Shown here: positions 49,788 to 59,044 of the stretch, in pieces | How the letters are laid out: the number at the start of each line of letters is the position of its first letter | Numbering within the stretch: position 1 is the stretch's first letter | Assembly: GCA_015066565.1 (NCBI GenBank) | Contig: SVOB01000001.1 | Span: 930,001-994,000, forward strand | Length of the DNA stretch: 64,000 bases | Reading direction: 5' to 3' | Source: Oscillospiraceae bacterium | GTDB lineage: Bacteria; Bacillota; Clostridia; Oscillospirales; Acutalibacteraceae | Program-made: the position numbers and the translations under genes | Notes under the pieces: generated by a model | Told to the model about the DNA's origin: nothing | Databases searched by the model: none | Seen by the model: the letters and a program-made list of their open reading frames with translations, nothing else

Positions 49788-51224
49788 ATGGCAGAACAGA
49801 AAAAAATGGTAGCCGAAATCACCTCTATGGAGGAGGATTTTGCAAAATGGTACACAGACGTAGTAAAAAAGGCTGAGCTTATAGGCTATACAAGCGTTAA
49901 GGGCTGTATGGCAATACGCCCCTACGGCTACGCAATCTGGGAAAATATGGTTTCGCTTCTTGACGGCGCGTTCAAAAAAACGGGTCACAAGAACGTAAAT
50001 ATGCCTATGTTTATTCCCGAAAGCCTTCTCAATAAAGAAAAGGACCACGTTGAAGGCTTCGCCCCCGAGGTTGCGTGGGTCACTCACGGCGGAAACGAGC
50101 CTCTTGAAGAGAGAATGTGCGTTCGTCCTACAAGCGAAACTCTCTTCTGTGACTACTATGCGAATACAATTCAGTCTTACAGAGACCTGCCCCAGCTTCT
50201 TAACCAGTGGGTAAGCGTTGTAAGATGGGAAAAGACAACAAGACCTTTCCTGCGTTCAAGAGAATTCTTATGGCAGGAGGGCCATACAATCCACGAAACA
50301 GCCGAGGAGGCTATTGCAGAAACCGAGCGGATGTTAAACATCTATGCAGACTTCTTTGAAAACAGCCTTGCAATCCCCGTTGTTAAAGGCCTGAAGACCG
50401 ACAAGGAAAAGTTTGCGGGCGCTGAAAAGACCTATACAATCGAGGCTCTTATGCACGACGGCAAAGCGCTTCAGAGCGGTACTTCCCATTATTTCGGCGA
50501 CGGCTTTGCAAAGGCTTTCGGTATTCAGTTCTTAGGAAGAGATAACAAGCTTCACTATCCTTTCCAGACCTCGTGGGGAACTACTACAAGGATGATAGGC
50601 GCGGTTATTATGGCTCACGGCGACAACAACGGTCTTGTCCTTCCGCCCGCCATTGCGCCTGTTCAGGTTATCGTTCTGCCTATAGCCCAGCATAAAGAGG
50701 GCGTTCTCGAAAAGGCAAGCGAGATTAAAGAAAGAATTTCCGCTTTCTGCCGCGCCGACATTGACGACAGCGACAACAGCCCCGGCTGGAAATTCTCACA
50801 GTATGAGATGAAGGGCGTTCCGCTCCGTCTTGAAATAGGTCCTAAGGATATAGAGAATAACCAGTGCGTACTCGTTCGCCGTGATACAAGAGAAAAGTAT
50901 TTCGTATCTCTCGACGAGCTTGAAACAAAAATCCCCGAGCTTCTCAAGGCGGTTCACGACGGTCTTTATAACGCCTGCCTTGAAAGACGTGAGAAGATGA
51001 CCTACGTTGCGAAAACCCTTGACGAGTTAAAGGATATCGCCGAAAACAAGCCCGGCTTTATAAAGGCTATGTGGTGCGGCGACGAGGAATGTGAAAACAT
51101 CCTTAAGGAGCAGGCGGGCGTTACCTCAAGATGTATTCCGTTTGAGCAGGAATGTCTTGACGAAAACTGCGTAGTCTGCGGTAAAAAAGCAAAGCACATG
51201 CTCTATTGGGGCAAGGCTTATTAA
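49788..51224 (+). CDS. proS: Proline--tRNA ligase, type 3
   Basis: This 478-residue class II synthetase is the archaeal/type 3 form without the bacterial editing insertion. Motif 2 region is [22 protein letters not shown] and motif 3 region is [21 protein letters not shown]. The C-terminus carries Cys residues in CGDEECENI and [13 protein letters not shown], the zinc site of this group, and ends in Tyr as expected. Its cognate tRNA-Pro lies in this window at 42553. ATG 49788 is chosen; a TTG at 49779 is possible. Confidence 0.95.
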
Positions 51225-51231
51225 AATCAGT

Positions 51232-51266
51232 TCGCCTGAACCCTTTTGGATTCAGGCGAGTTTTTT
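51232..51266 (+). terminator. Terminator after proS
   Basis: TCGCCTGAA and TTCAGGCGA form a nine-pair stem with a ten-base loop, then GTTTTTT. Confidence 0.85.
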
Positions 51267-51277
51267 GAGGAATTTTT

Positions 51278-52582
51278 ATGTTGTATTATGTTGAAGATTT
51301 CGGCGCAGTCGGCAACGGCGTGACCGATGACAGTCAGGCGATACAAAAAGCGATAGACACCTGCTGTGAAAACGGCGGCGGAAGCGTTGTGCTCTCAAGC
51401 GGCAAGCCCTATTACAGCAGTTCAATCACGTTAAAGAAAAATGTTGACCTGCATTTTGAAAAGAACGCCGTTCTTAAAGCGAACGCCGATATTGACTCGT
51501 ATATCCGCCCGTGCGAAATGATAAACAATCCCGAAACCGCTCTTATCGGAAACCCCGTAACGGGCAAGCCATCGTTTGTTTTTATCTACGGCTTTGAAGC
51601 GGACAACTGCTCGGTTACGGGCGAGGGCGTTATTGACCTTAACGGCGACGCCTTTGTTGAGAGAAAAAGTCCGTATTACGTCACGGGCAATTTTTACCCG
51701 AGACCGACGGGTATCTATATCGAAAACAGCCGTCATATTTCTTTTAAGGATATAACGCTGACTAACGCTCCGTTCTGGACTCTTCACCCCGCAGGCTGTG
51801 ACGATGTGCTTATTTCAAATATCCGTATTCTCAATCCCCTCGACAGGGCGAATTCGGACGGCATTGACCCCGACCACTCTTCAAATGTGAGAATTCTCGG
51901 CTGTCATATCGAATGCGCCGACGATTGCATTTGCCTTAAAACCACAAACGGTAACCGCGAATACGGACCGACGGAAAACGTTATTATTTCGGATTGCACT
52001 CTTACTTCGACCTCGGCGGCGATTAAAATCGGCACCGAAGGCGTAGGGAATTTCAGAAATATTGATGTTCACGACTGTGTTATTTCACGCTCGAACAGAG
52101 GTATTTCCATTCAGATTCGTGACGGCGGAAATGTTGAAAACGTCAGCTTTTCAAATATTTCAATCGAAACAAGACGCTTTTGCGAGGACTGGTGGGGAAC
52201 TGCCGAGCCCATAGCGATTACCTGCTTTGACAGGGACGAAAACACCTCGGCGGGAAAGATTAAAAATATTCGCTTTTTCAATATTAACTGTAAGGGCGAA
52301 AACGGAATTCTTGTTCACTCAACCGATAAGAACAGAATTGAAAACCTGCTTTTTGAAAATGTTTCCGTCACTCTTTCAAAGACGAGCAAATGGCCCTGCG
52401 GGCTTTACGATTTAAGACCGTGCCTTGAATACGGCGTAATAAATCAGAAGAATTCGCCCGTGTTTATGAGGTACGCTGATAACGTAACCTTCAGACACTG
52501 CGGTTTCTCAATTGAAAAGCCCAGCGAAAGCTACGGCGAAATAAAGAATATTGAAAACTGTGAAAATGTAATTTTTGAATAA
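51278..52582 (+). CDS. Glycoside hydrolase family 28 (polygalacturonase-like)
   Basis: This 434-residue parallel beta-helix protein starts directly with VEDFGAVGNGVTDDSQAIQKAI and has no signal peptide, so it would act on imported pectin oligomers. GH28 landmarks are NSDGIDPDHSSNV (first Asp), ADDCICLKTTN (Asp pair) and SAAIKIGTEGVGNF. The canonical G-H-G is not obvious, so the active site should be modelled. Single gene behind the proS terminator. It suggests pectin use by the host. Confidence 0.85.
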   Translation: MLYYVEDFGAVGNGVTDDSQAIQKAIDTCCENGGGSVVLSSGKPYYSSSITLKKNVDLHFEKNAVLKANADIDSYIRPCEMINNPETALIGNPVTGKPSFVFIYGFEADNCSVTGEGVIDLNGDAFVERKSPYYVTGNFYPRPTGIYIENSRHISFKDITLTNAPFWTLHPAGCDDVLISNIRILNPLDRANSDGIDPDHSSNVRILGCHIECADDCICLKTTNGNREYGPTENVIISDCTLTSTSAAIKIGTEGVGNFRNIDVHDCVISRSNRGISIQIRDGGNVENVSFSNISIETRRFCEDWWGTAEPIAITCFDRDENTSAGKIKNIRFFNINCKGENGILVHSTDKNRIENLLFENVSVTLSKTSKWPCGLYDLRPCLEYGVINQKNSPVFMRYADNVTFRHCGFSIEKPSESYGEIKNIENCENVIFE

Positions 52583-52591
52583 TATAAAAAG

Positions 52592-52625
52592 AACGGGCAG
52601 ACGGTCAACCGTCTGCCCGTTTTAT
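52592..52625. terminator. Bidirectional terminator
   Basis: AACGGGCAGACGG, a TCAA loop and the exact complement, between convergent genes, followed by TTTATTATTT. Confidence 0.9.
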
Positions 52626-52628
52626 TAT

Positions 52629-53084
52629 TTATCTCTCTTTATAGAAATAAGAGTTTTCAAATTGGTCAAAAAGCGGGTAATCCTTACTCCAGTCCGCCCA
52701 TTCAAAGCCCTCGTCATAGAAATTGGCGTCCTTAACCCAGATATATCTGTGACCGTTTTCGTCCTGATATACGGCGTAGGTATATCTGTCGCGGAAAGCC
52801 TGGTCAACCCTGCTTTCGCCCTCACGCCTTGCCCCGCCGAGCCATTCGGCTTTGACAAGGGTCAGGTTTTCGGGCGCTTTTTCAACAGAATAAAAATAAC
52901 TGCCGTCAAAGGTAAGATGAGAGAAATCGGAACTTACCGCAACGGGATTATATTTTTCGACATTAACAACCCTTGAAGCGAAGCCTACGGCGACAAGAAG
53001 AAAAACAAGAAGCATAGCGCCGAAAACAGTATATATTATTCTTTTTTCAAAAGTGCGCTTTTTAGCCTTCTTTTTTTCTTTCAT
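52629..53084 (-). CDS. Membrane-anchored protein of MurT/pseudo-GatD operon
   Basis: This 151-residue protein has a Lys-rich N-terminus (KEKKKAKKRTFEKR), one transmembrane helix at about residues 17-36, and an extracytoplasmic Tyr/Trp/Asp-rich domain (FRDRYTYAVYQDENG, FEWADWSKDYPLFDQF). I recognise no family. It starts four bases after the EctB-like aminotransferase gene, so it is the last member of the operon. It could act at the outer membrane face on the product of the pathway, but this is speculative. Confidence 0.6.
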   Translation of the reverse strand: MKEKKKAKKRTFEKRIIYTVFGAMLLVFLLVAVGFASRVVNVEKYNPVAVSSDFSHLTFDGSYFYSVEKAPENLTLVKAEWLGGARREGESRVDQAFRDRYTYAVYQDENGHRYIWVKDANFYDEGFEWADWSKDYPLFDQFENSYFYKER

Positions 53085-53088
53085 TTTT

Positions 53089-54336
53089 TTACCCGTTTAC
53101 GACCTCAAGTACACCGTTCTTAACTATCTCAAGTCCTCTTAAAAGCTCTTCCTTGGTTACTGTCAGAGCGGGCATAAGCTTAACCACGCCGTTATCCCTG
53201 CCTGCTCTTTCAAGGATGAGATTATGCTCAAAGCAATACTTTACAACAGCCTGTGACAGCTCGCTGACCTTCATATCAATACCCCAGATACAGCCGATAC
53301 CCCTGATTTCAAAGCCGAGGTTACCGAGGTTTTCGTTAAGATATTTTCCGATAATCTCGCCTGCGTCGCGAGCCATCTTTTCAACATTGTTTTCAAGATT
53401 GAACTCAATACCCGCCTTGGAAGCGACCATAGCCATCTGGTTACCTCTGAACGTTCCGTTGTGCTCGCCAGGTGTGAACACGTCGTATTCGGGCTTGAAA
53501 AGGGTTAAGGCGAACGGGAAACCGTAGCCGCCTATTGATTTTGAAAGGACTACCATATCGGGAACAATGCCCGCCCTCTCGAACGAGAAGAAGGTGCCGG
53601 TTCTTGCGTTGCCGACCTGAATATCGTCAACGATAAGAATAATCCCGTGCTTTGTGCAGAATTCTCTTACCGCCTTTAAATAATCGTTGCCGAGAACGTA
53701 AACGCCGCCCTCAGCCTGAACTGTTTCAAGAATGAAAGCCGCCGGCTTTTCAACTGCCGAATGGTCGTCGGAAAGAAGCGTTTCCATATATTCGACCGTA
53801 TCGAAATTTTCAAACATATACGGCGCGGGGATATGAAGAACGTCGTTAAGAGGAACTCCTGCGCCGCCCCTTGAGCCTTCGTCGCTTGTAAGAGCGAGCG
53901 AACCGAGAGTCATTCCGTGGAAAGCGCCCATAAGCGCCCAGACAGTGCGCCTTTTAGTGTATTTTCTCGCAAGCTTCAGCGCCGCCTCAACTGCGTTAGT
54001 ACCTGTCGGACCGGGGAACATAATTTTATAGTCAAGTCCTCTGGGCTTTAAGAGCTTATTTTCAATAGTGTCAATAAGCTGAGCCTTCGGCACAGTCATC
54101 ATATCAAGCCCGTGCATAAGACCGTCGTTTACAAGATAGTCAACAAGCTTTTCTTTTATATAATCGTTATTGTGGCCGTAGTTAAGAGCGCCCGCGCCGT
54201 TAAAGAAATCAAGGTATTCGTTACCGTTTTCATCAACAATTGTCGAGCCCTTTGCCTTTGAGAAAACTGCGGGGAAATTTCTGCAGTAAGAGCGTACGTT
54301 TGACTCGTACTCTTCAAAAATTCTTGAATTATCCAT
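53089..54336 (-). CDS. EctB-like diaminobutyrate aminotransferase
   Basis: This 415-residue class III aminotransferase closely follows EctB: IFEEYESNVRSYCRNFP, DFFNGAGALNYGHNN, GPTGTNAVEAALKLARKYT, IILIVDDIQVGNARTGTFF, and the PLP Lys in VLSKSIGGYG. EctB makes L-2,4-diaminobutyrate from aspartate semialdehyde and glutamate. No ectA or ectC is near, so ectoine is not the likely end product. It lies 16 bases after the GatD-like gene and four before the membrane protein gene. A different diamino acid or amino-group transfer is possible. Confidence 0.82.
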   Translation of the reverse strand: MDNSRIFEEYESNVRSYCRNFPAVFSKAKGSTIVDENGNEYLDFFNGAGALNYGHNNDYIKEKLVDYLVNDGLMHGLDMMTVPKAQLIDTIENKLLKPRGLDYKIMFPGPTGTNAVEAALKLARKYTKRRTVWALMGAFHGMTLGSLALTSDEGSRGGAGVPLNDVLHIPAPYMFENFDTVEYMETLLSDDHSAVEKPAAFILETVQAEGGVYVLGNDYLKAVREFCTKHGIILIVDDIQVGNARTGTFFSFERAGIVPDMVVLSKSIGGYGFPFALTLFKPEYDVFTPGEHNGTFRGNQMAMVASKAGIEFNLENNVEKMARDAGEIIGKYLNENLGNLGFEIRGIGCIWGIDMKVSELSQAVVKYCFEHNLILERAGRDNGVVKLMPALTVTKEELLRGLEIVKNGVLEVVNG

Positions 54337-54352
54337 TTAAAAGCACCGTCCT

Positions 54353-55066
54353 TTATCCAAAATAAACCGTTTTGGGGTTTTCAAATTCCTTTAATCTTTT
54401 TTCGTAAGCTGTTCTTATATCCTCTTCGCAGGGAACCGAAGCGTTCTCAATTCCGAGAAGCGAAAGAAGGTATTTTGTAAAATCGGGATTGAGAATGAGA
54501 AGCGGACCTAAAAGATAGGTTCCAAAAAAGTTGTTTCTCCTCAGACCCTCGAATTTGCTTCCGGGGTGAAGCCCGTCGCCTCTTAAGGTGTTGAACAGAC
54601 CCTCGCTTTCGTTTTCGCCGTAGGAATGGGAAAACTGAGCCTTGAAGCCTACGATTTTAATGCCGTCAAGCTCGCCGAAATAAAGGGAGTTATATCTGTT
54701 CATCATTTTCCTCTTGGCATAAGTGTTAAAAATGCCGAGAGCCTTTATTTTTGTTCCGTCCTCGTTTTCAATGTAATCGCCGAAAATTTCAAGCGCATTA
54801 CCGATAATAAGGAAAACCTTATTTTCGCTTATAAGCTGTTCAAGCCTTTCCTTAAAAGGCGAAAGCTTTTCGATAACAATTTCCTGACCTCTTTCGGTCA
54901 TAGGACCCATATAGATAAGGTCAACGTCGTTCTTTACGAAATACGGCTCTTCGTTGACCTTTGTCTTAACGATTTCTGCGTCGGGAAGGCATTTTTCGAT
55001 ATATTTCATTTCAACCGCTTCGCCGTAGAGATTGGCAAGCGCAGGATATAAAAACTCAACTGTCAT
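54353..55066 (-). CDS. GatD-like amidotransferase homologue lacking Cys and His catalytic residues
   Basis: This 237-residue GATase_3-fold protein resembles GatD, the glutaminase subunit of lipid II isoglutaminyl synthase. Where GatD has the nucleophile in ICGGYQ, this protein has IGNALEIFG (Gly89 at the Cys position). Where GatD has GTYLHGP, it has GTYLLGP (Leu186 for His). Other fold segments (DGTKIKALGIFNTY, GIKIVGFKAQFSHSYG) remain. It therefore should not hydrolyse glutamine. Its start overlaps the MurT-like stop (ATGA), so the two are made together. Confidence 0.85.
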   Translation of the reverse strand: MTVEFLYPALANLYGEAVEMKYIEKCLPDAEIVKTKVNEEPYFVKNDVDLIYMGPMTERGQEIVIEKLSPFKERLEQLISENKVFLIIGNALEIFGDYIENEDGTKIKALGIFNTYAKRKMMNRYNSLYFGELDGIKIVGFKAQFSHSYGENESEGLFNTLRGDGLHPGSKFEGLRRNNFFGTYLLGPLLILNPDFTKYLLSLLGIENASVPCEEDIRTAYEKRLKEFENPKTVYFG

Positions 55067-56445
55067 CAGCCTTCACCTCCCTGCTTCTGACGAAGCCGTC
55101 TTTTTATTTCGTCACGGACGGCGAGCGCCTCGTCATTTCTGTAAAGCTCGTGTAATACATAAATTTTATCGGCGTCCCATCTGACAGCGTCAGGCGTGTC
55201 GGACTCCTTTTCAACACAGACGATTTTTTCCTTGCCGACGCCCGCGATTTCAAGCCTGACCTTATAGTCAATAGCTCTTACGCCGCCGATGATAACCCTT
55301 TTAATACTTTCATCGCCGAGAAATTCAAAGTCGGCGTCATAAATCCAACAGATGTTTTCGCTTGAAACGGCGTTATCGTGAACGTCGTCAAGAAGCAGAA
55401 TAACCTCTTTTGTGCCCTCGGCTTTTCTTACATAATCGAAAACGCACGAGCAGGCAATCGGGTTCTGACCCTTTGCCATATTTGAAATAACCTCAATATT
55501 TCCGATTTTTTCGTTTGAAAAACGGGTTTCAACAATTTTCTGGTTTGAAATAACCTCGGAAAGCTTTTCGGGGTCAATTCCGAACTGTTCAAGAAGCGCA
55601 ACGACAGCGGTAAGGTTATATGCGTTGAAAATGCTGTCGTTTACGAGTTTAAACTGAAAGCTCTTTGAGTCATGCTTCATTGTCAAGGAAAGGTTTTTAA
55701 AATCAACCGTCGCCTTATATTCGGGGTCGGGTGAAGCAAAATCACAGTTCGGACAGTGCGCCCTGCCGATATGGTGATAGCGGACAAAATCATATTCAAG
55801 CTCGCTGTTACAGACAGGACAGAGCCGCATATCGTTTACAATATTTATTGATTCGGGAAGGTCGCTTTCCATTTTTTCAATTCCGAAATAAACCCTCTCG
55901 TTTTCGGGAGCGATTCTTGAGGAAACAAGGTCGTCGGCATTTAAAACGAGTTTAGTTGATTTGGGAACATATTTTGAAATAATATCGAGTATATATTCCG
56001 AGTGAGCGTTTCTTCTTATTGAGTCTCTGAAAAGATTTGTGCAGAGAAGATAGTTCGGCTTAACATAGGGGTAAATTCGCACCGAGCTTCTTTCGTCAAT
56101 TTCAAAAACGGCTATTCTTTTCTTCGCCTTTCCGAAAAGAGTGCTTCCGGAAATGAGCGAGCTTGCAACGCCCGCGTTGATATTCGAGCCGAACCTGTTA
56201 TTGAGAACGTCATAGCCCAAGTCCGTAAGAGAGTCGATTATCAGGTTACAGCAGGTCGTTTTTCCGTTCGTACCCGTAACGCCGATTATCGTTTCGGGCT
56301 TGTCAATTCTGCCTAAAAAATCGGGGCAGAGAGTAATCGCTATTTTACCGGGAAAATAGCTCGCGTTCATTTTCAGAAGCCTTTGGGCGACCATAGCCGC
56401 CTTGGCAACGAAAAGAGCGATAAAAAACCTTAAATTCTTTTTCAA
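55066..56445 (-). CDS. MurT-like Mur ligase family protein
   Basis: This 459-residue Mur-ligase-fold protein has the ATP loop GVTGTNGKTT at residues 55-64. The zinc ribbon CPVC/CPNC lies near 208-230, as in MurT, and the C-terminal DUF1727 region keeps ICWIYDADFE. In S. aureus, MurT with GatD amidates the stem-peptide glutamate of lipid II. Here the partner is a dead glutaminase, so ammonia must come from elsewhere or another amine is joined. Translation starts at TTG 56445, with GAGAGG nine bases upstream. Confidence 0.88.
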   Translation of the reverse strand: MKKNLRFFIALFVAKAAMVAQRLLKMNASYFPGKIAITLCPDFLGRIDKPETIIGVTGTNGKTTCCNLIIDSLTDLGYDVLNNRFGSNINAGVASSLISGSTLFGKAKKRIAVFEIDERSSVRIYPYVKPNYLLCTNLFRDSIRRNAHSEYILDIISKYVPKSTKLVLNADDLVSSRIAPENERVYFGIEKMESDLPESINIVNDMRLCPVCNSELEYDFVRYHHIGRAHCPNCDFASPDPEYKATVDFKNLSLTMKHDSKSFQFKLVNDSIFNAYNLTAVVALLEQFGIDPEKLSEVISNQKIVETRFSNEKIGNIEVISNMAKGQNPIACSCVFDYVRKAEGTKEVILLLDDVHDNAVSSENICWIYDADFEFLGDESIKRVIIGGVRAIDYKVRLEIAGVGKEKIVCVEKESDTPDAVRWDADKIYVLHELYRNDEALAVRDEIKRRLRQKQGGEG

Positions 56446-56505
56446 TTCGGAATACCTCTCAAAATCAAGAATATAAAACTACACAATAAATTGTAATATC
56501 GATTT

Positions 56506-56534
56506 ATTATATCACTACCTATTGTAACTTGCAA
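56506..56534 (-). promoter_or_regulatory. Promoter for MurT/pseudo-GatD/EctB operon
   Basis: Minus-strand TTGCAA (56529-56534), a 17-base spacer and TATAAT (56506-56511) with TGA before it. The leader to the TTG start is about 55 bases. Confidence 0.65.
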
Positions 56535-56594
56535 TAAAAAATCAGTAAATATAATAAGTATATGAAAAAATTTATTCAAAACTCATATTTATAA

Positions 56595-56623
56595 TTGAAT
56601 TATCCCCTGATTTTTGATAGAAT
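56595..56623 (+). promoter_or_regulatory. Promoter for flavodoxin-fold reductase
   Basis: TTGAAT (56595-56600), a 17-base spacer and TAGAAT (56618-56623) with TGA before it, an extended -10. Confidence 0.6.
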
Positions 56624-56662
56624 TACAGTAACGCTAAACTAAAAACCGAAAGGATGAACTAT

Positions 56663-57280
56663 ATGAAAGTGCTTATAATCAACGGAAGCCCCAGGGCTAA
56701 CGGCAACACCGTTCTCGCTTTAAGGGAAATGGAAGCGGTTTTTCACGAAAACGGAGTTGAAACCGAAATTGTAACAGTCGGCAACAAGGATATAAGAGGC
56801 TGTATCGCCTGCGGCAGCTGCGCAAAGAACGGAAAATGCGCATTTGACGACCTTGTAAACGAAACCGCGCCTAAATTCAAGGAGGCAGACGGGCTTATTA
56901 TCGCTTCGCCCGTTTACTACGCTTCGGCAAACGGAACTCTTATTTCGTTTTTAGACAGGCTTTTCTATTCGTCGCATTTTGACAAAACGATGAAGGTCGG
57001 CGCTTCGGTTGCCGTTGCAAGAAGAGCGGGCACAACAGCCACCTTTGACGAAATGAACAAGTATTTTACAATCTGCGGAATGCCCGTCGCTTCCTCAAAC
57101 TATTGGAACGAGGTTCACGGCAGAGAAAAGGGCGACGTAACAGAGGATAAAGAGGGTATGCAGACCCTCCGCACGCTCGCAAGAAATATGACCTTCCTTA
57201 TGAAGAGCATTGAGCTTGGCAAGGAAAAATTCGGTCTTCCCGAAAAAGAGGAAAAGGTCTGGACTCATTTTGTAAGATAA
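56663..57280 (+). CDS. Flavodoxin family NAD(P)H-dependent reductase
   Basis: This 205-residue protein has the FMN phosphate-binding loop VLIINGSPRANGNTV at residues 3-17 and ASPVYYASANGTLISFLDR near 88. The Cys-rich loop IRGCIACGSCAKNGKCAFDD is common in iron-sulfur flavoprotein-like reductases of anaerobes and may bind a cluster. Substrate unknown. ATG 56663 is chosen because AAAGG sits at proper distance; the ATG at 56654 is too near. Confidence 0.85.
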   Translation: MKVLIINGSPRANGNTVLALREMEAVFHENGVETEIVTVGNKDIRGCIACGSCAKNGKCAFDDLVNETAPKFKEADGLIIASPVYYASANGTLISFLDRLFYSSHFDKTMKVGASVAVARRAGTTATFDEMNKYFTICGMPVASSNYWNEVHGREKGDVTEDKEGMQTLRTLARNMTFLMKSIELGKEKFGLPEKEEKVWTHFVR

Positions 57281-57290
57281 GAATGAAAAA

Positions 57291-57327
57291 GCAGGGCGGT
57301 ATCGGTTAACCGATACCGCCTGTTTTT
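57291..57327. terminator. Bidirectional terminator
   Basis: GGCGGTATCGG, TTAA and CCGATACCGCC form a near-perfect stem with AGCA/TGTT flanks and T-runs, between convergent genes. Confidence 0.88.
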
Positions 57328-57329
57328 AT

Positions 57330-57932
57330 TTATTTTTGACCTTCCTTATAAGCCTTATAGTCAAACTCCGTTATCCTGTCGCCCTTGACCATAAAGACCC
57401 TCTTTGCCATTTCCATAAGCGGAGCGTCGCTTATCGAATCGGTATAAAAATCGTCGATTTCGGCGTCGGGGAAAATCTCTTTAAACGCCTTCGCCTTATT
57501 CTCGCGGTAATTGACCCTGCCGATTTCGCCCGTTGAAAGGTCAACCTCGGTACCTATCATACGGCTTTCGTCAATGCCCATTCTTTTAAGCATTATTTTA
57601 AGCATCGGCTCGGGACACGCCGAAACGATAACATCGTCGTCTTTTCTGACCGTTTCATAAAACGGCTTGATTTTTTTCTCATGAGCGTCCCAGAATTTTT
57701 CAAGCTCGTTTTCAAGATTATCAACCTTCGCAAGATAGTCCTTGAGCATATAGCCGTATTCGTTCTTTACGTCGTCAATCTGAATGAGATTTCTTTTATA
57801 TTTTATAAAGCCCTCGCCGAATTTTCCGACGTATTTAAAAACACCGAACGGGTCCTTTTTAAAGAAATGAAGAAAAATTCCAAGTCCGCTTTCTCCGTCG
57901 TATATTGTATTGTCAAAATCGTAAACGTTCAT
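57330..57932 (-). CDS. HAD superfamily (IB) phosphatase
   Basis: This 200-residue HAD hydrolase has motif I YDFDNTIYDGES, motif II VSACPEP and motif III/IV FYTDSISDAPLMEMA. Subfamily IB phosphatases dephosphorylate phosphoserine, lysophospholipid-like or sugar phosphates; the substrate is unknown. Its start overlaps the glycerate kinase stop by four bases. Confidence 0.85.
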   Translation of the reverse strand: MNVYDFDNTIYDGESGLGIFLHFFKKDPFGVFKYVGKFGEGFIKYKRNLIQIDDVKNEYGYMLKDYLAKVDNLENELEKFWDAHEKKIKPFYETVRKDDDVIVSACPEPMLKIMLKRMGIDESRMIGTEVDLSTGEIGRVNYRENKAKAFKEIFPDAEIDDFYTDSISDAPLMEMAKRVFMVKGDRITEFDYKAYKEGQK

Positions 57933-59044
57933 CTTTCTACCTCAATGTTTTTTGCTGTTTCCACAAGAAGATTATATGCATTTTTTATTGCATTTTCAAG
58001 GGTAATTGACTTATTCATTATTTTATATGCGCTTTCAAAGCCCATTCCCTTTATATCGGCGTCGGGTGAAATGTCGCCGCTTAAAAGGACGCACCTTTTA
58101 CCGTATTTTTTACAAAGGGCGCTGATTTTAAAGGGAAGCTTTCCGAAGGAGGTCTGATAATCGGTTCTGCCCTCACCCGTTATTACAAGGTCGGCTGACT
58201 TAATCAGCTCTTCAAGTCCCGCCTTTTCGCTCAAAACGTCAAAGCCCGATTTGATTTCGCAGTCAAAAAACGAATACAGCCCGCCGCAAAGTCCGCCTGC
58301 CGCGCCCGAGCCGCTGACCGACTGAATATCTTTCTTTGAAAAGGAATTATAGATTTCCGAAAGGTTTTTAAGTCCCCTGTCAAGAAACTCAATTTCCTTT
58401 TCGCCCGCTCCCTTTTGAGAAGCGAAAACGTACGCCGCCCCGTTTTTCCCGTAAAACGGGTTTTCAACGTCGCAGGCGAGAGTGAATTTTATATTTTTGT
58501 ATTTAGAAAATTCATCTCTTATAGAAACGCTTTTAGCCCTTATCATATTTTCGCCCGAAGGCTCAAGGACTTTTTGGTTTTCATCAAGAAAATCAACGCC
58601 GAGTGCGTTAAGGGCGCCCATTCCGCCGTCATTCGTAGCCGAGCCGCCAAGCCCGACAATAATTCTGTCCGCGCCGTTTTCAACCGACTTTTTTATAATC
58701 AGACCCGTTCCATAGGTCGAGGCTTTAAGGGGATTGAGCCTTGGCTTTTCAACGGTCATTATTCCGCTTGCAGTCGCCGTTTCAACAAAAGCCGAGCCGT
58801 CTTTGAGCAAAAGGAAATCGCCGTCAAGTTCTTCAAAAAATATATTTTTTGTTTTTACCTTTCTATATTCCCCGCCGACAATTCTTTTTAAGCATTCGGC
58901 TGTCCCCTCGCCTCCGTCGGCAAGAGGAAGCAGGGTTATTTCGCTATCGGGACTGTTTTTCAGTATTCCCTCTTTTACGGCGTTCGCCGCTTCATAGGAA
59001 GAAAGACTGCCCTTAAAGGAGTCGGGGCAAACAAGAATTTTCAT
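57929..59044 (-). CDS. Glycerate kinase
   Basis: This 371-residue enzyme is of the GarK/GlxK type. CPDSFKGSLSSYEAANAVKEG at the N-terminus and LPLADGGEGTAECL, VGLGGSATNDGGMGALNALG and DLVITGEGRTDYQTSFGKLP are diagnostic. It phosphorylates D-glycerate to 2-phosphoglycerate. The start codon overlaps the mfd stop, and the stop overlaps the HAD phosphatase start. Confidence 0.93.
   Translation of the reverse strand: MKILVCPDSFKGSLSSYEAANAVKEGILKNSPDSEITLLPLADGGEGTAECLKRIVGGEYRKVKTKNIFFEELDGDFLLLKDGSAFVETATASGIMTVEKPRLNPLKASTYGTGLIIKKSVENGADRIIVGLGGSATNDGGMGALNALGVDFLDENQKVLEPSGENMIRAKSVSIRDEFSKYKNIKFTLACDVENPFYGKNGAAYVFASQKGAGEKEIEFLDRGLKNLSEIYNSFSKKDIQSVSGSGAAGGLCGGLYSFFDCEIKSGFDVLSEKAGLEELIKSADLVITGEGRTDYQTSFGKLPFKISALCKKYGKRCVLLSGDISPDADIKGMGFESAYKIMNKSITLENAIKNAYNLLVETAKNIEVER

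What the first reader, a model, noticed from the sequence alone, without database searches (positions are those of the whole stretch)
52629..56445. Operon joining a MurT-like ligase, a dead GatD, an EctB-like aminotransferase and a membrane protein
Seen: four genes with gaps of -1 (ATGA), 16 and 4 bases behind one clear promoter. Known: MurT/GatD amidates lipid II glutamate; EctB makes 2,4-diaminobutyrate. Inference: the ligase may attach diaminobutyrate or another amine to a Mur-pathway or other carboxylate, giving a modified wall precursor or a new metabolite, with the anchored protein acting outside. I know of no described system with this set.
Basis: partly seen in the sequence, partly recalled or inferred. 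Interest (0 to 1): 0.82.

Follow-up and report, generated by a model that had tools for sequence, protein, structure and literature searches.

The report
Cell-wall ligase with retired glutaminase
A gut bacterium carries a relative of the enzyme pair that puts ammonia on cell-wall building blocks, but its ammonia-releasing half has lost its active site and it sits beside an enzyme that makes the amino acid diaminobutyrate, which suggests that it attaches a different molecule to the wall.

Summary
The four-gene operon is real. The GatD-like protein has Gly and Leu for the catalytic Cys94 and His189, and the MurT-like protein has Asn for Asp349; C94G and D349N are tested inactive mutants in S. 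aureus with glutamine. No second MurT was found in the genome. This is clade-wide: 0 of 101 clade rows keep Cys94 or His189, a new motif (T-G-N-x-x-E) fills the nucleophile elbow, and ATP, acceptor and glutamine-capture residues stay. The diaminobutyrate transaminase lies beside the pair in 8 of 103 loci, in two gene orders, including Coriobacteriales. A PF14397 ATP-grasp ligase lies beside the pair in 10 of 103; one subfamily of it also pairs with the transaminase. The membrane protein is not conserved. Best reading (inferred): an ATP-dependent ligase on a wall-precursor carboxylate whose donor is no longer glutamine-derived ammonia, here probably diaminobutyrate. Against: 10 of 20 family carriers and 13 of 16 class-sample carriers lack the transaminase, and a Cys-less S. 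aureus complex still uses free ammonia at pH 8.5.

The parts
55066..56445 (-). MurT-like Mur ligase (459 aa): P-loop GTNGKT, four-Cys zinc ribbon, Asn at the place of S. aureus Asp349
   Evidence: PF08353 and PF08245; alignment to solved MurT; residues
54353..55066 (-). GatD-like class I glutaminase fold without the catalytic Cys and His (Gly89, Leu186); Arg124 (Sa Arg128) kept
   Evidence: PF07685; AlphaFold2 model pLDDT 94.3, TM 0.85 to 5n9m
53089..54336 (-). Diaminobutyrate--2-oxoglutarate transaminase (EctB-like, 415 aa)
   Evidence: NF006733 570.3 bits; closest solved chains are diaminobutyrate transaminases, 391.7 bits
52629..53084 (-). 151-aa protein with one likely N-terminal membrane helix (seen by eye); lineage-specific, found only in the close relative L166 among 80 named loci
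   Evidence: No Pfam or NCBIfam match
56506..56534 (-). Extended -10 promoter-like site TTGCAA-17-TATAAT
   Evidence: nearly identical in L166
52590..52623 (.). Two-way intrinsic-terminator-like hairpin, 15 pairs

Best explanation
The MurT/GatD-like pair is an ATP-dependent, two-subunit Mur-type ligase. Its GatD subunit is no longer a glutaminase but a conserved structural and probably ligand-binding partner. MurT activates a carboxylate on a peptidoglycan precursor, most likely the alpha-carboxyl of D-Glu on a lipid-linked precursor as in canonical MurT, and joins it to an amino acid or amine other than glutamine-derived ammonia. In this organism the operon supplies that donor: the transaminase makes L-2,4-diaminobutyrate from aspartate semialdehyde and glutamate. 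The product would be a diaminobutyrate branch on D-Glu, formally like the linkage of group B peptidoglycan or the polyamine substituents of Negativicutes. Shown: operon, loss of the three triad residues, kept ATP and acceptor residues, the new conserved motif, the repeated gene association. Inferred: acceptor, donor, product.
For: Triad lost clade-wide: 0 of 101 rows with Cys94 or His189; Asp349 is Asn in 65 of 77 named rows and never Asp there. New conserved residues instead of drift: GatD T-G-N-x-x-E (Thr 94, Asn 99, Glu 98 of 101) and MurT Asn146 92/95, His148 91/95, Glu363 95/96. Arg128, which in S. aureus is needed for glutaminase activity and was seen holding glutamine (PMC5871853, passages), is kept in 98/101. 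Asn88 (the acceptor Asn), Asp117 and Glu118 are 94/94 (roles from PMC6085368, passages). Transaminase beside the pair in 8 of 103 loci in two gene orders; 5-6 changes on the tree, at least 3 forced by starred branches; 3 of 10 family genomes that have both genes have them within 5 kb, expected 0.045. Co-occurrence 10 of 20 against 12 of 130. ATP-grasp partner shared by both.
Against: 10 of 20 family carriers and 13 of 16 class-sample carriers have no transaminase at E <= 1e-100. Outside the own genome the class-sample association rests on two genomes of one genus (p=0.04). The transaminase label is somewhat clustered on the tree (as low in 7 of 500 shuffles), so the number of independent origins is uncertain. 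Neighbours of most loci are housekeeping genes. S. aureus MurT/GatD-C94G still uses NH3 at pH 8.5 (PMC3266927, passages). No chemical evidence.
Confidence: 0.4

Rival explanations
1. Ammonia-fed isoglutaminyl synthase: in ammonia-rich gut and rumen the glutaminase became dispensable. GatD stays only because MurT needs its partner, and the pair makes ordinary D-isoglutamine from free NH3. The transaminase serves something else.
For: S. aureus MurT/GatD-C94G keeps NH3-dependent activity at pH 8.5, and MurT alone is inactive (PMC3266927, passages). Most carriers lack the transaminase. The named loci come largely from gut, rumen and faecal assemblies (titles).
Against: The same mutant does not use NH3 at pH 7.5. 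MurT-D349N, the natural state here, abolished glutamine-dependent amidation in S. aureus (PMC6113224, passages; NH3 use of that mutant not seen), though the pneumococcal Asp355Ala only lost part. A new motif and Arg128 are conserved, which a mere scaffold would not need. It leaves the transaminase and ATP-grasp links unexplained. A Glu in the old pocket could also hold NH4+, so the motif does not exclude it.
Confidence: 0.25
2. Donor that varies by host: the same altered ligase joins different amines or amino acids (diaminobutyrate, ornithine, putrescine, glycine), fixed by what each lineage makes.
For: Carriers with and without transaminase are mixed on the tree; one carrier has an arginase-family gene right behind GatD (L202).
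Against: No other amine-producing gene recurs beside the pair among the neighbours that I annotated (a part of all neighbours). One arginase neighbour may be chance.
Confidence: 0.2
3. Non-wall acceptor: the pair and the ATP-grasp ligase build a small diaminobutyrate peptide or a modified cofactor.
For: Neighbours are rarely wall genes, and the DNAAD motif of canonical MurT, proposed to meet the stem-peptide lysine (PMC6113224, passages), is changed.
Against: Zinc ribbon (four Cys, 96/96), acceptor Asn and Mg-site acids are conserved. In 6 of 8 genomes where the transaminase adjoins the pair there is a single MurT. One transaminase gene overlaps a penicillin-binding-protein gene by 4 bases (L096).
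Confidence: 0.1

Closest known systems
MurT/GatD lipid II isoglutaminyl synthase (S. aureus, S. pneumoniae, S. pyogenes, M. tuberculosis)
   Same: Two adjacent genes, MurT_C and GATase_3 folds, zinc ribbon, ATP site, acceptor residues, Arg128
   Different: Cys94, His189 and Asp349 lost; new T-G-N-x-x-E motif; scores far below the NCBIfam equivalog cut-offs (188-209 of 800; 58-75 of 400-450 bits)
Archaeal MurT-like ligases without GatD (PMC11915815, passages)
   Same: MurT relatives that cannot use a GatD glutaminase
   Different: There GatD is absent; here it is kept, with a rebuilt active site. No tree against them was made.
EctB diaminobutyrate transaminase of ectoine synthesis
   Same: Same subfamily
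   Different: No ectoine synthase EctC in the own genome; sits with wall-type ligases
PF14397 ATP-grasp ligases
   Same: Lie beside the pair and beside the transaminase in relatives
   Different: No match in the window's own genome at E <= 1e-20; role unknown
Polyamine-substituted peptidoglycan of Negativicutes and group B peptidoglycan with diaminobutyrate (PMC10628300, PMC4156110; passages)
   Same: Known walls with the kind of substituent proposed here (polyamine on the D-Glu alpha-carboxylate; a diamino acid bridge)
   Different: Their attaching ligase is not named in what I read; the MurE here is of the DAP type

Membership tests
MurT/GatD lipid II isoglutaminyl synthase (glutamine-hydrolysing) | adjacent murT and gatD genes with MurT_C and GATase_3 domains | tested here: met
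MurT/GatD lipid II isoglutaminyl synthase (glutamine-hydrolysing) | ATP site (GTNGKT, Glu108) and four-Cys zinc ribbon of MurT | tested here: met
   (Cys 96/96, Glu108 94/94 in the clade; window has all)
MurT/GatD lipid II isoglutaminyl synthase (glutamine-hydrolysing) | catalytic Cys94 and His189 of GatD | tested here: not met
   Gly and Leu in the window; 0 of 101 rows keep either
MurT/GatD lipid II isoglutaminyl synthase (glutamine-hydrolysing) | MurT Asp349 of the shared triad | tested here: not met
   Asn in the window; Asp in 0 of 77 named rows and 2 of 18 family rows
MurT/GatD lipid II isoglutaminyl synthase (glutamine-hydrolysing) | curated equivalog score cut-offs (NCBIfam) | tested here: not met
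MurT/GatD lipid II isoglutaminyl synthase (glutamine-hydrolysing) | amidation of lipid II with glutamine | not testable with these tools
   needs an assay
EctB diaminobutyrate transaminase | subfamily score over its cut-off | tested here: met
   NF006733 570.3 against 438
EctB diaminobutyrate transaminase | equivalog score for ectoine EctB | tested here: not met
   TIGR02407 538.6 against 552.2
EctB diaminobutyrate transaminase | ectoine synthase EctC in the genome | tested here: not met
   no PF06339 match in G000
Group B peptidoglycan organism | diamino acid on the D-Glu alpha-carboxyl, cross-linked to position 4 | not testable with these tools
   needs muropeptide analysis
Group B peptidoglycan organism | residue other than DAP at position 3 (typical, recalled) | tested here: inconclusive
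   MurE of G000 has DNPR, recalled as the DAP-type motif

The most novel reading that the evidence does not exclude
A widespread family of MurT/GatD-like complexes in gut Clostridia, Erysipelotrichaceae and Coriobacteriales has turned an amidotransferase into an amino-acid-adding wall ligase. The former glutaminase site is rebuilt as a binding chamber for the incoming amino acid, and in transaminase-linked lineages it hangs diaminobutyrate on the D-Glu alpha-carboxyl. It would be the first ligase that I know of for that class of wall modification.
Probability: 0.33. Interest if true: 0.82.

Novelty: new variant of a known kind. Interest (0 to 1): 0.65.

Why it matters
Substituents on the D-Glu alpha-carboxyl (amide, glycine, polyamines, group B bridges) shape cross-linking and how hosts sense wall fragments, but the amide is the only one whose enzyme I know of (recalled, and not contradicted by the passages read). 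A clade with a disabled glutaminase, a new conserved motif and repeated partnership with a diaminobutyrate transaminase gives a concrete candidate that can be tested in one enzyme assay and one muropeptide run. It also warns against naming every MurT/GatD pair an isoglutaminyl synthase.

Tried and rejected
Ectoine synthesis: EctC in 1 of 22 transaminase genomes, and that match covers 64 of 127 positions. NRPS use of diaminobutyrate: condensation domains in 7 of 22 genomes; the own genome has one weak match (38.1 bits). Decarboxylation to 1,3-diaminopropane: 9 of 22 have some group II decarboxylase match, but only 2 (G136, G108) a long one, and the own genome none (other decarboxylase folds were not searched).

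Conserved operon with the membrane gene: rejected, 1 of 80 named loci. Viral relatives: none confirmed. Rfam at 51000-58000: no match at gathering score. The same-genus genome G088 lacks both genes; its Mfd-like region gave no empty site because synteny ends there. The 19-row GatD alignment was too diverse for the named scan, so a 7-row one was used; 147 relatives were found and the best 80 kept, which biases the named set towards window-like GatD. Clade B: also without Cys/His in 9 of 9 loci inspected, no transaminase within those loci. Of 52 GatD matches in the family sample, 33 were inspected by residue and 19 were not. The MurE motif script picked the wrong ORF for G033 and G030 (G033 read correctly).

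Literature searches returned no description of this gene set or of a group B ligase. They cover open-licence PMC papers only; two searches returned 0 papers, mostly noise. Papers beyond those cited as passages were seen as listings or not at all.
Full report
OBSERVATION. The window holds four minus-strand genes at the stated coordinates, with junctions TGATG (1-base overlap), 16 and 4 bases, behind an extended -10 promoter-like site at 56534-56506 and closed by a two-way terminator at 52590-52623. The promoter stretch is almost identical in L166, a water-buffalo rumen MAG whose GatD is 84% identical and which has the same four genes in the same order.

IDENTITY. Pfam and NCBIfam give MurT, GatD (GATase_3), diaminobutyrate transaminase and an unassigned 151-aa protein. 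The MurT-like protein matches S. aureus MurT (6gs2) at 186.3 bits; the GatD-like protein matches 9sq9 (S. pyogenes GatD) at 60.6 bits. An AlphaFold2 model of the GatD-like protein (pLDDT 94.3) finds only GatD structures in its nine best matches, with TM 0.85 to 5n9m at 25% identity, so the fold is intact. The transaminase matches solved diaminobutyrate transaminases at 391.7-373.9 bits, and the next kind of enzyme at 178.7.

A DEAD GLUTAMINASE, CLADE-WIDE. In the family sample 49 of 150 genomes (own genome included) have a GatD relative, 52 matches in all. I inspected 33 loci by residue, the window included: window-like clade A (21 loci, 20 genomes), a second Cys-less clade B (9 loci) and canonical ones (3 loci, with Cys, His and Asp). 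The other 19 matches were not inspected. In 80 named clade A loci, mostly MAGs titled Oscillospiraceae, Lachnospiraceae, Clostridia, Erysipelotrichaceae and Coriobacteriales, Cys94 is Gly in 76, Ser in 2, Asn in 1 and Tyr in 1; His189 is never His; Asp349 is Asn in 65 of 77 and never Asp. Two family clade A rows keep Asp there (L038, L039). In S. aureus, GatD-C94G and MurT-D349N abolish glutamine-dependent amidation (PMC3266927 and PMC6113224, passages); in pneumococcus Asp355Ala only reduced it (PMC6085368, passage). One MurT_C match was found in the own genome, so no canonical pair is seen there.

NOT DRIFT. Clade B shares T-G-N-x-x-E (Glu in 8 of 9) and an R-N-G-H loop. That MurT loop lies at the GatD interface in the pneumococcal structure (PMC6085368, passages). 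Residues for ATP, Mg and the acceptor carboxylate stay, and so does Arg128 (98/101), whose Ala mutant was inactive and which was seen holding glutamine in S. aureus (PMC5871853, passages). I read this as a rebuilt donor site; that is inference.

THE TRANSAMINASE LINK. It lies within 4 kb of the pair in 3 of 21 family loci (window, L045, L047), 5 of 80 named loci (L166, L167, L180, L226, L231) and 0 of 9 class-sample loci: 8 of 103 after removing 7 repeats. It follows GatD in the window, L166, L167, L180 and, 2.4 kb away, L047; it precedes MurT in L045, L226 and L231. On a 94-row MurT+GatD tree the label needs 5-6 changes, at least 3 forced by starred branches, though it is also somewhat clustered (as low in 7 of 500 shuffles). 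Among 10 family genomes with both genes, 3 have them within 5 kb against 0.045 expected. The transaminase is in 10 of 20 clade A genomes against 12 of 130 others (p=4e-5). Against this, in a class-wide sample of 391 genomes only 3 of 16 clade-A-like carriers have it, against 7 of 375 others (p=0.006; 0.04 without the own genome, and the other two are one genus). So diaminobutyrate cannot be the donor everywhere unless it is made or taken up in another way.

A THIRD PARTNER. An ATP-grasp ligase (PF14397) lies beside the pair in L042, L044, L047, L195, L209, L229, L237, L242, L245 and L289 (10 of 103), between GatD and MurT in L245. It lies beside the transaminase in 8 of 22 family transaminase genomes (G017, G021, G025, G056, G099, G100, G108, G136; the G056 transaminase frame holds a stop) and in 1 of 7 further class-sample transaminase loci (G238). 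One well-supported clade of 15 holds seven transaminase-linked, three MurT-linked and five other members. The family has many unlinked members (54 of 150 genomes match), and the window's genome has no match at E <= 1e-20. Three genes that pair in all combinations suggest one process that uses diaminobutyrate and forms amide bonds. The other neighbours that I annotated are mostly housekeeping genes without a pattern; one transaminase gene overlaps a penicillin-binding-protein gene by 4 bases (L096).

ALTERNATIVE USES. EctC is missing in 21 of 22 transaminase genomes, the one match being partial. Long group II decarboxylase matches occur in 2 of 22 (9 of 22 with any match), and condensation domains in 7 of 22. 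None of these explains the operon.

MECHANISM AND RIVALS. The strongest rival is use of free ammonia (0.25), because the S. aureus C94G complex still does this at pH 8.5, though not at 7.5 (PMC3266927, passages). A donor that varies by host (0.2) and a non-wall acceptor (0.1) remain. MurE of this genome has the motif DNPR, recalled as the DAP type, so any diaminobutyrate would be a branch rather than part of a classical group B2 stem.

COMPARISON. It works on the plan of MurT/GatD but fails that family's defining glutaminase residues, so I do not file it as an isoglutaminyl synthase. Polyamines on the D-Glu alpha-carboxylate (PMC10628300) and group B walls with diaminobutyrate (PMC4156110) are precedents for the proposed product (passages). 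No paper found describes this gene set (open-licence library only). A role for the membrane protein is not supported.

Noticed in passing
L052-L060: A second Cys-less GatD clade (B) shares T-G-N-x-x-E and an R-N-G-H MurT loop but has Glu or Asp at Asp349 (6 and 3 of 9); no transaminase link was seen. Its donor is a separate question.
   Followed up: partly
L105-L134: MurE in this family comes in DNPR and DNSR/DNCR forms, and 4 of 30 genomes searched (G006, G033, G068, G110) have two MurE genes over the cut-off.
   Followed up: no
L184:6613-10564: Frisingicoccus caecimuris has two MurT/GatD-like pairs in tandem, the second MurT-like ORF being shorter (372 aa).
   Followed up: no
L202:8723-9568: An arginase-family gene lies 20 bases behind a clade A GatD; it could supply ornithine or putrescine.
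   Followed up: no
L096:5860-8483: A diaminobutyrate transaminase gene overlaps a penicillin-binding-protein transpeptidase gene by 4 bases.
   Followed up: no
window 56500-56545: The promoter stretch, including TTACAATAGGTAGTGATATAAT, is almost unchanged in L166 while the flanks diverge, so it may also hold an operator.
   Followed up: no
L263 and L264: Still more diverged MurT/GatD-like pairs in the class sample, in which the elbow reads I-N-N and the GP after the histidine place is changed.
   Followed up: no
L226:6652-11003: Two proteins starting MSGIVG and MCGICG, which look by eye like asparagine-synthase-type amidotransferases, lie next to the Coriobacteriales MurT-like locus.
   Followed up: no
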